Part shown: positions 2,349 through 4,268 of the stretch, piece after piece | Numbering within the stretch: position 1 is the first letter of the stretch | Layout: the number at the start of each line of letters is the position of its first letter | Source of the DNA: Candidatus Woesearchaeota archaeon | GTDB lineage: Archaea > Nanobdellota > Nanobdellia > Woesearchaeales > GW2011-AR4 | DNA length: 64,000 bases | Assembly: GCA_016185755.1 (NCBI GenBank) | Contig: JACPMX010000011.1 | Location: 1-64,000, forward strand | Direction: 5' to 3' | Program-made: the position numbers and the translations under genes | The notes under the pieces: generated by a model | What the model saw: only the letters and a program-made list of their open reading frames with translations | Told to the model about the DNA's origin: nothing | The model's database searches: none

Positions 2349-3371
2349 ATGAAAGAAAATAAAGAAATAGCAGAATGTGTTGGCTTATGGCTAGCAGAAG
2401 GTGATGATAAATGCAATAATGAGATTACTTTTACTAATAACCAGTTTGAGCTAATTGAATTCTTCCATAAAAATATCAAGAAATTGTTCTTAAATTATAA
2501 ATTCAATATAAGAATCTATGTTTACACTCCTAATGGCGAAAATGTAACAGTTCCGTTAGAAGTTACTAAAGTAAATAGGTACATAGACAATAGGGCAAAT
2601 AAGCCTTATTATATTTGGAGATTAGCATCCGTAGAATTACATAGAAAATGGAAGAATATTGTAGAATTGTATAAAAATAATTCTACTTTCTATGTAGACA
2701 TACTAAGAGGATTCTTTGCTGGAGAAGGAAGTATAAAATCAACTTCACATAACAGCAGATCAGTAATGATTTCTCAATTACCCAGCATTTTCTTAGAAAA
2801 AATGCTTCGACACCTTGAAATAGAATTTAAGTATCATCCTGGAAATAGGAGTTATTTCATTACTCACTGGGATAATTGGGATAAACTAGCCAAAATCAAA
2901 ATAGCTGATTTACATTCGGCAAAGAAAGAAAAATTTTGGAAAATTTATGATGAATTTAAGGAACGCCATTATAAAAGCCACCATATTATGGAGGATACAC
3001 TTCGATTGTTAATTGCCCCTTATATGACTTCTGAACTTGCAATTATTTTTGATAGAACAGAAGCCAGAATTCAAGATGTTTTAATTGACTTAAAAAGTAG
3101 GGGCGTTATCAATAATTTTAAATGTGGTCTAAAAACTTATTGGATAAAAAATGACCAAAATGTTGTAATAATATCTAAATTAAAATGGAACTATCTCAAT
3201 TTCCTAGAAAACAAACCAACAAATACGGCAGAAATAGCAAAGTTTTTTAATGTGAATTTTCATTCATCAAAAAAGAGACTTAAAGAATTAGAAAAATTAG
3301 GTCTTGTCATAAGAAAAATAGATAAAAAATGGGAAAAAATTAATCCTGCTAAAAAGGTGATTGTTTTATGA
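2349..3371 (+). CDS. LAGLIDADG homing endonuclease-like protein with C-terminal HTH-like region
   Basis: Two LAGLIDADG-type motifs: CVGLWLAEGDD and LRGFFAGEGSI; SD GGAGGT upstream of ATG 2349. Confidence 0.8.
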   Translation: MKENKEIAECVGLWLAEGDDKCNNEITFTNNQFELIEFFHKNIKKLFLNYKFNIRIYVYTPNGENVTVPLEVTKVNRYIDNRANKPYYIWRLASVELHRKWKNIVELYKNNSTFYVDILRGFFAGEGSIKSTSHNSRSVMISQLPSIFLEKMLRHLEIEFKYHPGNRSYFITHWDNWDKLAKIKIADLHSAKKEKFWKIYDEFKERHYKSHHIMEDTLRLLIAPYMTSELAIIFDRTEARIQDVLIDLKSRGVINNFKCGLKTYWIKNDQNVVIISKLKWNYLNFLENKPTNTAEIAKFFNVNFHSSKKRLKELEKLGLVIRKIDKKWEKINPAKKVIVL

Positions 3372-4268
3372 CATTAGTCTGTGGCATTGATGAGGCAGGC
3401 AGAGAGCTTTAAAGGTTCGCCTTAAGGCCCCATCATTGGTCCCTTAGTAATGTGTGGTTTTCAGATAGAAGAGAAGCAAGAAATCCAGTTAAGGAAGATA
3501 AAAGTAAAGGATTCAAAGCTTTTAACTAGAGAAGAGAGGGAAGACCTGTACACTCAAATACTTAAAATTTCTGATAAATACAAAATAGTAATAATAAATT
3601 CACAAGAAATTGATAGAGCTGTGCAAGGTCATGATGGTTTAAACCTAAATTGGCTAGAAGCTGATAAATCAGCCGAAATACTAAATGATTTAGCACCAGA
3701 TAAGGCAATCATAGATGCTCCAGGAAATAATATTGAAAAATATAAGAATTATCTTTCAAAGAAGATAAATAATAAGAAGATTAACTTAGTCTTAGAGCAT
3801 AAAGCAGACGTTAATTATCCGATTGTTAGTGCCGCTTCTATTTTGGCTAAAGTGACCAGAGACACTGAAATAGAGCTATTAAAAAAGCAAATAGGCATTG
3901 ATTTCGGCTCCGGCTACATGTCAGATCCCAAGACAGTGGAGTTCCTGCAAAAAAACTTCGAAAAATATCCTGACATGTTCAGGAAAAGCTGGTTTCCATA
4001 CCGGGAGCTTGTGAACAAAAAATTCCAGAAAAGCCTTTCAGATTTCACTCAGTTTTTGAAGGAAGAGAAGAAGCACAAAGGGCACACCCTGGAAGACCTG
4101 AAAAAGCTCGAGGATTTCGGCTATCACTTCGAAAAGCCCAAGTCAGAGCATGAGCTTGCAGTCATGAAAGGGCCTGCAACTGTTATTCTTTACAAGAACG
4201 GAAAACTGCTTGTGCAGGGAAAGGATGACGCTAAAAAATCCGTAAGCAATCTTCTTGGCTCCGGTTAA
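3368..4268 (+). CDS. rnhB: Ribonuclease HII, reading frame interrupted by a 22-nt insert in the catalytic motif
   Basis: MTLVCGIDEAGR[22 nt]GPIIGPLVMCGFQ...KVKDSKLL...ADVNYPIVSAASILAKVTRD...FGSGYMSDP; start overlaps the upstream stop (ATGA). Confidence 0.88.
3405..3426 (+). other. 22-nt hairpin insert (UUCG loop) within the rnhB codons for GRG
   Basis: AGCTTTAAAGGTTCGCCTTAAG; removal joins AGA-G to GC-CCC giving RGP; TAA at 3410-3412 in frame. Confidence 0.9.

What the first reader, a model, noticed from the sequence alone, without database searches (positions are those of the whole stretch)
2349..3450. Possible archaeal analogue of the T4 mobA/gene 60 cassette: endonuclease gene plus short hairpin interruption of a conserved target
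In phage T4 the gene 60 bypass sequence (UUCG-capped stem-loop, stop codon just after take-off, matched Gly take-off/landing codons) lies beside the MobA homing endonuclease and is thought to interrupt its target site. Here a LAGLIDADG ORF ends on the rnhB start codon (ATGA overlap), and about 35 nt into rnhB the most conserved codons are interrupted by a short UUCG hairpin with an immediate UAA. The hypothesis is that the enzyme cuts uninterrupted rnhB at the DEAGRGP codons and the 22-mer marks the immune allele. The same layout with a different endonuclease family and host gene would be new.
Basis: inference. Interest (0 to 1): 0.87.

Follow-up and report, generated by a model that had tools for sequence, protein, structure and literature searches.

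The report
Tiny mobile intron in archaeal rnhB
The 22-base interruption in this archaeal RNase HII gene is almost certainly a tiny RNA intron cut out by the cell's tRNA-splicing machinery, and it travels with a neighbouring DNA-cutting (homing) enzyme gene; such a pairing in an archaeal protein-coding gene has not, to my knowledge, been described before.

Summary
In detail: a LAGLIDADG endonuclease ORF (2349-3371) overlaps the rnhB start (ATG 3368), and rnhB is interrupted after 35 nt within the DEAGRGP codons. The interruption is not a T4 gene 60-type translational bypass. [quoted passage not shown] Removing it at the canonical BHB cut sites restores GRGP exactly. More than 40 homologous introns (19-52 nt, all three length phases) occur at the same site across DPANN archaea, with strong compensatory covariation (central helix 99% paired). 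All 37 close endonuclease homologues with enough contig sit directly 5' of rnhB, and 31 of those rnhB genes carry the intron. In the host's order, 17 of 18 endonuclease-linked rnhB genes are interrupted versus about 10 of 296 others. Endonuclease and rnhB trees conflict, endonucleases decay while introns persist, and exon flanks show a co-conversion-like footprint. The best model is collaborative homing: an endonuclease outside the intron targets uninterrupted rnhB, the intron protects the invaded allele, and host splicing makes it harmless. Cleavage and splicing are inferred, not assayed. The parts are known separately (crenarchaeal cbf5 intron; phage psbA/F-CphI); the combination appears new.

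The parts
2349..3371 (+). Free-standing LAGLIDADG homing endonuclease gene: two LAGLIDADG motifs (catalytic acids E17 and E126, invariant in 10 homologues) plus a C-terminal winged-helix domain; stop overlaps the rnhB start
   Evidence: Close homologues always lie directly upstream of rnhB where contig allows.
3368..3402 (+). rnhB exon 1 (M T L V C G I D E A G and the first two bases, AG, of the Arg codon)
   Evidence: Sequence; splice junction from the BHB fit
3403..3424 (+). 22-nt BHB intron AGAGCTTTAAAGGTTCGCCTTA; removal joins AG^A to restore GGC AGA GGC CCC (GRGP)
   Evidence: covariance-model match 68 bits, E = 7.6e-18 in the window
3397..3400 (+). BHB central helix, 5' strand (AGGC, exon)
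   Evidence: Pairs with 3419-3422; 99.2% of cells paired in 32 homologues, with compensatory changes
3401..3403 (+). BHB bulge 1 (AG^A), predicted 5' splice site between 3402 and 3403
3404..3418 (+). Intron inner hairpin GAGCTT-TAA-AGGTTC
   Evidence: All six pairs have compensatory changes among homologues
3419..3422 (+). BHB central helix, 3' strand (GCCT, intron)
3423..3425 (+). BHB bulge 2 (TA^A), predicted 3' splice site between 3424 and 3425
3425..4268 (+). rnhB exon 2 (rest of RNase HII, then DUF3378-like tail)
   Evidence: spliced product is 292 aa
33107..34420 (+). rtcB, RNA ligase expected to join the exons
   Evidence: PF01139, 579.9 bits. The splicing endonuclease (PF01974, 97.6 bits) is elsewhere in the same assembly, contig C9.

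Best explanation
rnhB carries a 22-nt archaeal BHB intron. The pre-mRNA folds so that exon 1 (AGGC) pairs with the 3' end of the intron (GCCU), giving a 4-bp helix flanked by two 3-nt bulges. The archaeal splicing endonuclease cuts between bases 2 and 3 of each bulge, and RtcB joins the exons to restore the DEAGRGP active-site motif. The adjacent LAGLIDADG protein is a homing endonuclease encoded outside the intron. It cuts uninterrupted rnhB at the intron insertion site, and repair from the donor copies intron, nearby exon and endonuclease gene together. The intron protects the invaded allele and splicing makes it harmless (collaborative homing). Over time the endonuclease decays and the intron remains as a relic. 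Shown by sequence: the conserved BHB structure, exact frame restoration, non-random linkage and conflicting gene trees. Inferred: splicing in vivo, DNA cleavage, and the order of events.
For: (1) BHB structure: of 32 interrupted loci, 30 have a perfect 4-bp central helix with 3-nt bulges and cuts that restore the exact frame; 29 also reach 3 or more inner pairs, against 0.4% of shuffled introns. Exon-intron pairing is complete in 30/32 with the own partner but 12-19% with another locus's. Covariation score is 0.583 vs 0.190 in shuffles (0/500) and at most 0.154 when slid; central helix 99.2% paired. RNAalifold finds the same pairs unaided. (2) Three introns found by the covariance model and not used to build it all fit. 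Three loci with the BHB shifted by 2 nt still yield GRG. (3) The genome has a splicing endonuclease and RtcB. (4) Linkage: all 37 close endonuclease homologues with contig room lie directly 5' of rnhB, 31 with the intron; in the order 17/18 vs about 10/296. (5) Mobility: rnhB 71% but endonuclease 34% identical for L081/L089, the reverse for L067/L073 (41% vs 63%); AU tests reject shared clades both ways (p 1e-7 to 3e-4). (6) Footprint: same-codon identity among non-sister interrupted alleles is 0.69 within 16 codons of the intron and 0.34-0.51 beyond, vs about 0.40 for other pairs; the Arg codon is AGA in 37/38 interrupted vs 10/29 uninterrupted alleles. (7) Decay series: intact, broken, truncated or no endonuclease with intron kept. 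(8) Fold and catalytic acids of an active LAGLIDADG enzyme.
Against: No RNA data and no cleavage assay. Six endonuclease-linked rnhB genes are uninterrupted (L067, L072, L073, L077, L085, L092); three have a different Arg/Lys codon at the site (CGT or AAG) and the other three have changed neighbouring codons, which may make them resistant, but this is unproven. Two interrupted loci (L049, L086) fit the BHB imperfectly. The short footprint could partly reflect constraint from the outer helix. All genomes are metagenome assemblies, so some broken endonuclease frames may be errors. In the window's own family the endonuclease and rnhB diverge at similar rates, so there it may be mostly vertical.
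Confidence: 0.86

Rival explanations
1. Translational bypass as in T4 gene 60: ribosomes hop over the hairpin from a take-off codon to a matching landing codon.
For: A short hairpin with a UUCG segment and an in-frame stop soon after the junction. The stop is a conserved trait: exon-frame stop within 12 nt of the intron start in 32 of 40 introns versus 9.8 expected from shuffles.
Against: Only 2 of 32 loci have a take-off/landing triplet that would keep the protein intact, and Gly codons match in 9 of 32. The insert changes sequence and length freely while exon-intron pairing is kept. The cut positions are those of a splicing endonuclease in nearly every case.
Confidence: 0.03
2. The intron is real, but the LAGLIDADG-winged-helix protein is a domesticated regulator of rnhB (as WhiA is in Gram-positive bacteria), not a homing enzyme.
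For: LAGLIDADG plus C-terminal winged helix; always next to rnhB; in some Pacearchaeota fused in frame to RNase HII; NCBI names close homologues 'winged helix-turn-helix transcriptional regulator'.
Against: Both catalytic acids are invariant. The gene is patchy, often broken or absent while the intron stays, and is swapped independently of rnhB. The link to the intron has no explanation under this view.
Confidence: 0.07
3. The protein is a maturase needed to splice the intron.
For: Best fold match is the bI3 LAGLIDADG maturase; tight linkage.
Against: 10 of 27 interrupted genomes in the order lack the gene, and others carry truncated or frameshifted copies. BHB introns need only the splicing endonuclease and ligase (established knowledge).
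Confidence: 0.04
4. rnhB is a pseudogene, or the insert is an assembly error.
For: The frame is broken in the annotated sense.
Against: Same site in more than 40 genomes with conserved structure; downstream rnhB keeps an intact RNase HII frame.
Confidence: 0.005

Closest known systems
cbf5 pre-mRNA intron of Desulfurococcales/Sulfolobales (Crenarchaeota)
   Same: BHB intron in an archaeal protein-coding gene; short (16-44 bp vs 19-52 nt here); disrupts a catalytic codon; cut between bases 2 and 3 of the bulges; lineage-specific loss (PMC2738675).
   Different: Different host gene and phyla; no endonuclease partner reported. That paper only speculated that cbf5 introns might descend from ORF-bearing introns.
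Collaborative homing: cyanophage S-PM2 psbA group I intron and F-CphI (Zeng, Bonocora and Shub 2009, as described in PMC6083498)
   Same: Endonuclease gene adjacent to, not inside, an intron-bearing gene; targets the uninterrupted site; the intron blocks self-cleavage.
   Different: There a self-splicing group I intron and an Endo VII-type enzyme in phages; here a protein-spliced BHB intron and a LAGLIDADG enzyme in cellular archaeal genomes.
Archaeal rRNA BHB introns encoding LAGLIDADG enzymes (I-DmoI type)
   Same: BHB intron plus a LAGLIDADG enzyme of the same fold.
   Different: There the enzyme is encoded inside an rRNA intron; here the intron is far too short and the gene lies outside it, beside an mRNA.
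Phage T4 mobA / gene 60 bypass cassette (from general knowledge)
   Same: A homing endonuclease gene beside an interrupted conserved gene.
   Different: Interruption removed by RNA splicing rather than skipped by the ribosome; unrelated enzyme family.

Membership tests
Archaeal BHB intron | 4-bp helix flanked by two 3-nt bulges at the exon-intron borders | tested here: met
   30 of 32 loci perfect; window locus AGGC/GCCU with bulges AG^A and TA^A
Archaeal BHB intron | Cuts between bases 2 and 3 of the bulges give the correct mature product | tested here: met
   GRGP-type frame restored exactly, including three loci with a shifted BHB
Archaeal BHB intron | Splicing endonuclease and ligase present in the host | tested here: met
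   PF01974 and RtcB in the same assembly
Archaeal BHB intron | Excision observed in RNA | not testable with these tools
   No transcript data available
Collaborative homing pair | Endonuclease gene adjacent to, and outside, the intron | tested here: met
   Directly upstream of rnhB in all 37 close homologues with contig room
Collaborative homing pair | Patchy distribution and mobility independent of the host gene | tested here: met
   27 of 362 genomes interrupted; tree conflict; clades were chosen after seeing the trees
Collaborative homing pair | Enzyme cuts the uninterrupted site and not the interrupted one | not testable with these tools
   Needs a cleavage assay; the footprint and the AGA signature are only indirect
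LAGLIDADG homing endonuclease | LAGLIDADG fold with two motifs and catalytic acidic residues | tested here: met
T4 gene 60-type translational bypass | Matched take-off and landing codons giving an intact protein | tested here: not met
   2 of 32 loci only; not in the window locus

The most novel reading that the evidence does not exclude
Introns of archaeal protein-coding genes are, at least in DPANN archaea, former mobile DNA elements: free-standing LAGLIDADG genes beside housekeeping genes insert tiny BHB introns at active-site codons, move between phyla, then disappear and leave the intron behind. The orphan cbf5 intron of Crenarchaeota may be such a relic.
Probability: 0.35. Interest if true: 0.93.

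Novelty: new variant of a known kind. Interest (0 to 1): 0.85.

Why it matters
A 2020 study states that only one further BHB intron outside tRNA and rRNA, that of crenarchaeal cbf5, had been reported in archaea, besides the Haloferax mRNA BHB it describes itself (PMC7714728). This would be a second coding BHB intron, widespread in DPANN archaea, and the first with an identifiable means of spread, which makes the long-open question of how archaeal mRNA introns arise directly testable. It would extend collaborative homing from phage group I introns to cellular archaea. In practice, rnhB (and probably other genes) in dozens of DPANN genomes is mis-annotated as truncated, and the endonuclease is mis-named a transcription regulator.

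Tried and rejected
T4-style bypass: tested on 32 loci and rejected. Simple single-sequence folding of the region is not exceptional (z = -0.69); the evidence comes from comparison, not from energy. Other copies of the 22-mer in the window: none; covariance-model scan of the window: only this site. Rfam: no family covers it. PDB sequence search with the endonuclease profile: only weak winged-helix hits, resolved by fold search. The deep-divergence codon analysis shows the footprint clearly only at the Arg-Gly codons (0.66 vs 0.23-0.32) and weakly beyond, so the longer footprint is claimed only within the host's own family. Origin from the neighbouring tRNA-Met intron (same GGCAG^AG and GCCTWA^ borders) was considered: suggestive, but only a few bases are shared and the tRNA is not next to the pair in other genomes, so it is left as an idea.

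Full report
What is in the sequence. The LAGLIDADG ORF 2349-3371 ends on the rnhB start (A3368 TG A3371), and rnhB is interrupted after 35 nt. The host is an archaeon whose named close relatives are Candidatus Woesearchaeota.

What the insert is. Folding the region pairs exon AGGC with insert GCCU, leaving a 3-nt bulge (AGA) on one strand and UAA(G) on the other. This is the bulge-helix-bulge motif cut by archaeal splicing endonuclease. Cutting AG^A and UA^A removes exactly 22 nt and restores GGC AGA GGC CCC, the invariant GRGP of RNase HII. A single sequence proves little (folding z-score -0.69), so I turned to relatives.

The same site is interrupted in many genomes. A genus/family survey gave four interrupted rnhB genes, with inserts of 22, 22, 31 and 37 nt, among 80 relatives. 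A search with the endonuclease and a named-genome scan gave many more from Woese-, Pace-, Nano-, Diaphero-, Aenigm-, Micr- and Nanohaloarchaeota and one MAG labelled Thermoplasmata. A brute-force search for cuts that restore the protein found, for 30 of 32 interrupted loci, a perfect 4-bp helix with two 3-nt bulges. Twenty-nine also have at least three inner pairs, against 0.4% of shuffled introns. Synonymous changes in the exon Ala and Gly codons are matched by changes in the intron (AGGC/GCCU, UGGU/GCCA, CGGA/UCCG, AGGA/UCCU, CGGG/CCCG, CGGU/GCCG). On a plain MAFFT alignment of 32 introns the covariation score is 0.583 versus 0.190 in shuffles and at most 0.154 in slid controls, and RNAalifold finds the same helices unaided. 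In three loci (L088, L093, L095) the motif is shifted by 2 nt, yet its cuts still give GRG. Lengths (19-52 nt) fall in all three phases. A covariance model splits the order cleanly: 27 of 362 genomes score 52-77 bits, and the remainder score at most 36 bits, nearly all as 35-nt uninterrupted exon matches; three of the 27 were new and all fit. Twelve more genomes of the class, outside the order, match at E <= 1e-7. The host has a splicing endonuclease and RtcB. Splicing therefore rests on strong comparative evidence but was not observed.

Why not bypass. A lossless bypass needs the same triplet at take-off and landing; 2 of 32 loci have one. Early termination of ribosomes that enter unspliced message is a plausible reason, but this is unexplained.

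The endonuclease belongs to it. All 37 close homologues with enough contig lie directly upstream of rnhB, including remnants, and 31 of these rnhB genes carry the intron. In the order, 17 of 18 endonuclease-linked rnhB genes are interrupted against about 10 of 296 others (Fisher p = 3e-20, with genomes not independent). The protein has two LAGLIDADG motifs with invariant acids E17 and E126 and a confident model whose fold neighbours are I-DmoI and other LAGLIDADG enzymes, plus a winged-helix tail.

Mobility. Endonuclease and rnhB identities are only weakly correlated across 30 loci (rho 0.22). L081 and L089 share 71% in rnhB but 34% in the endonuclease; L067 and L073 share 41% and 63%. Well supported clades differ between the two trees, and AU tests reject the exchange in both directions; the clades were named after the trees were seen. 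Gene order around rnhB is otherwise conserved between the window's genome and its congeners with and without the pair, so the pair is the optional part. In the host family, same-amino-acid codon identity among non-sister interrupted alleles is 0.69 within 16 codons of the insertion site and 0.34-0.51 beyond, while other allele pairs stay near 0.4. The split Arg codon is AGA in 37 of 38 interrupted but 10 of 29 uninterrupted alleles. This is what co-conversion around a cut site, or recognition of that site, would leave; the outer RNA helix may explain part of it.

Life cycle. Interrupted genes occur with intact, frameshifted, truncated or no endonuclease. One genome (G069) has a decayed endonuclease and an uninterrupted rnhB. 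This fits invasion, fixation, decay and loss. It also argues against the protein being required for splicing.

Comparison with what is known. The element works like collaborative homing (F-CphI and the psbA intron; PMC6083498) with an archaeal BHB intron like that of cbf5 (PMC2738675). A 2020 paper lists cbf5 as the only such additional intron reported in archaea (PMC7714728). Searches of the held papers for an rnhB or ribonuclease HII intron in archaea found none; most subscription journals are not held. Membership of the BHB class is met on every feature that could be tested. Membership of collaborative homing is met except for the cleavage tests, which need a bench.

Noticed in passing
window 2043-2146: tRNA-Met(CAU) gene with a 29-nt intron in the D-loop (2058-2086), missed by ARAGORN and only weakly seen by Rfam; its BHB borders (GGCAG^AG ... 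GCCTAA^) resemble those of the rnhB intron. The orthologous tRNA in G022 lacks it, while other family members have it.
   Followed up: partly
40 intron sequences: Exon-frame stop codon within 12 nt of the intron start in 32 of 40 rnhB introns, far above shuffles (mean 9.8, max 20); the other two frames show 3 and 8 of 40. Possibly a translation checkpoint for unspliced mRNA.
   Followed up: partly
L067, L077, L092 (no intron) and L068, L071, L074, L079 (with intron): The endonuclease frame runs without a stop into RNase HII, suggesting in-frame endonuclease-RNase HII fusions in Pacearchaeota and Diapherotrites.
   Followed up: no
L110, L112, L113, L114, L115, L117: More distant LAGLIDADG relatives also lie directly beside housekeeping genes: between archease and rtcB, after ppsA, after rpsI, and overlapping the start of purA; these genes look uninterrupted.
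   Followed up: partly
L116 (G376): rnhB with an intron and a truncated, fused endonuclease remnant downstream of a fragment that looks like a reverse transcriptase.
   Followed up: no
L086 and L049: Two interrupted rnhB loci that fit the BHB motif only 3/4 in the central helix; L086 has a run of five G at the junction that may be a sequencing error or a relaxed motif.
   Followed up: partly
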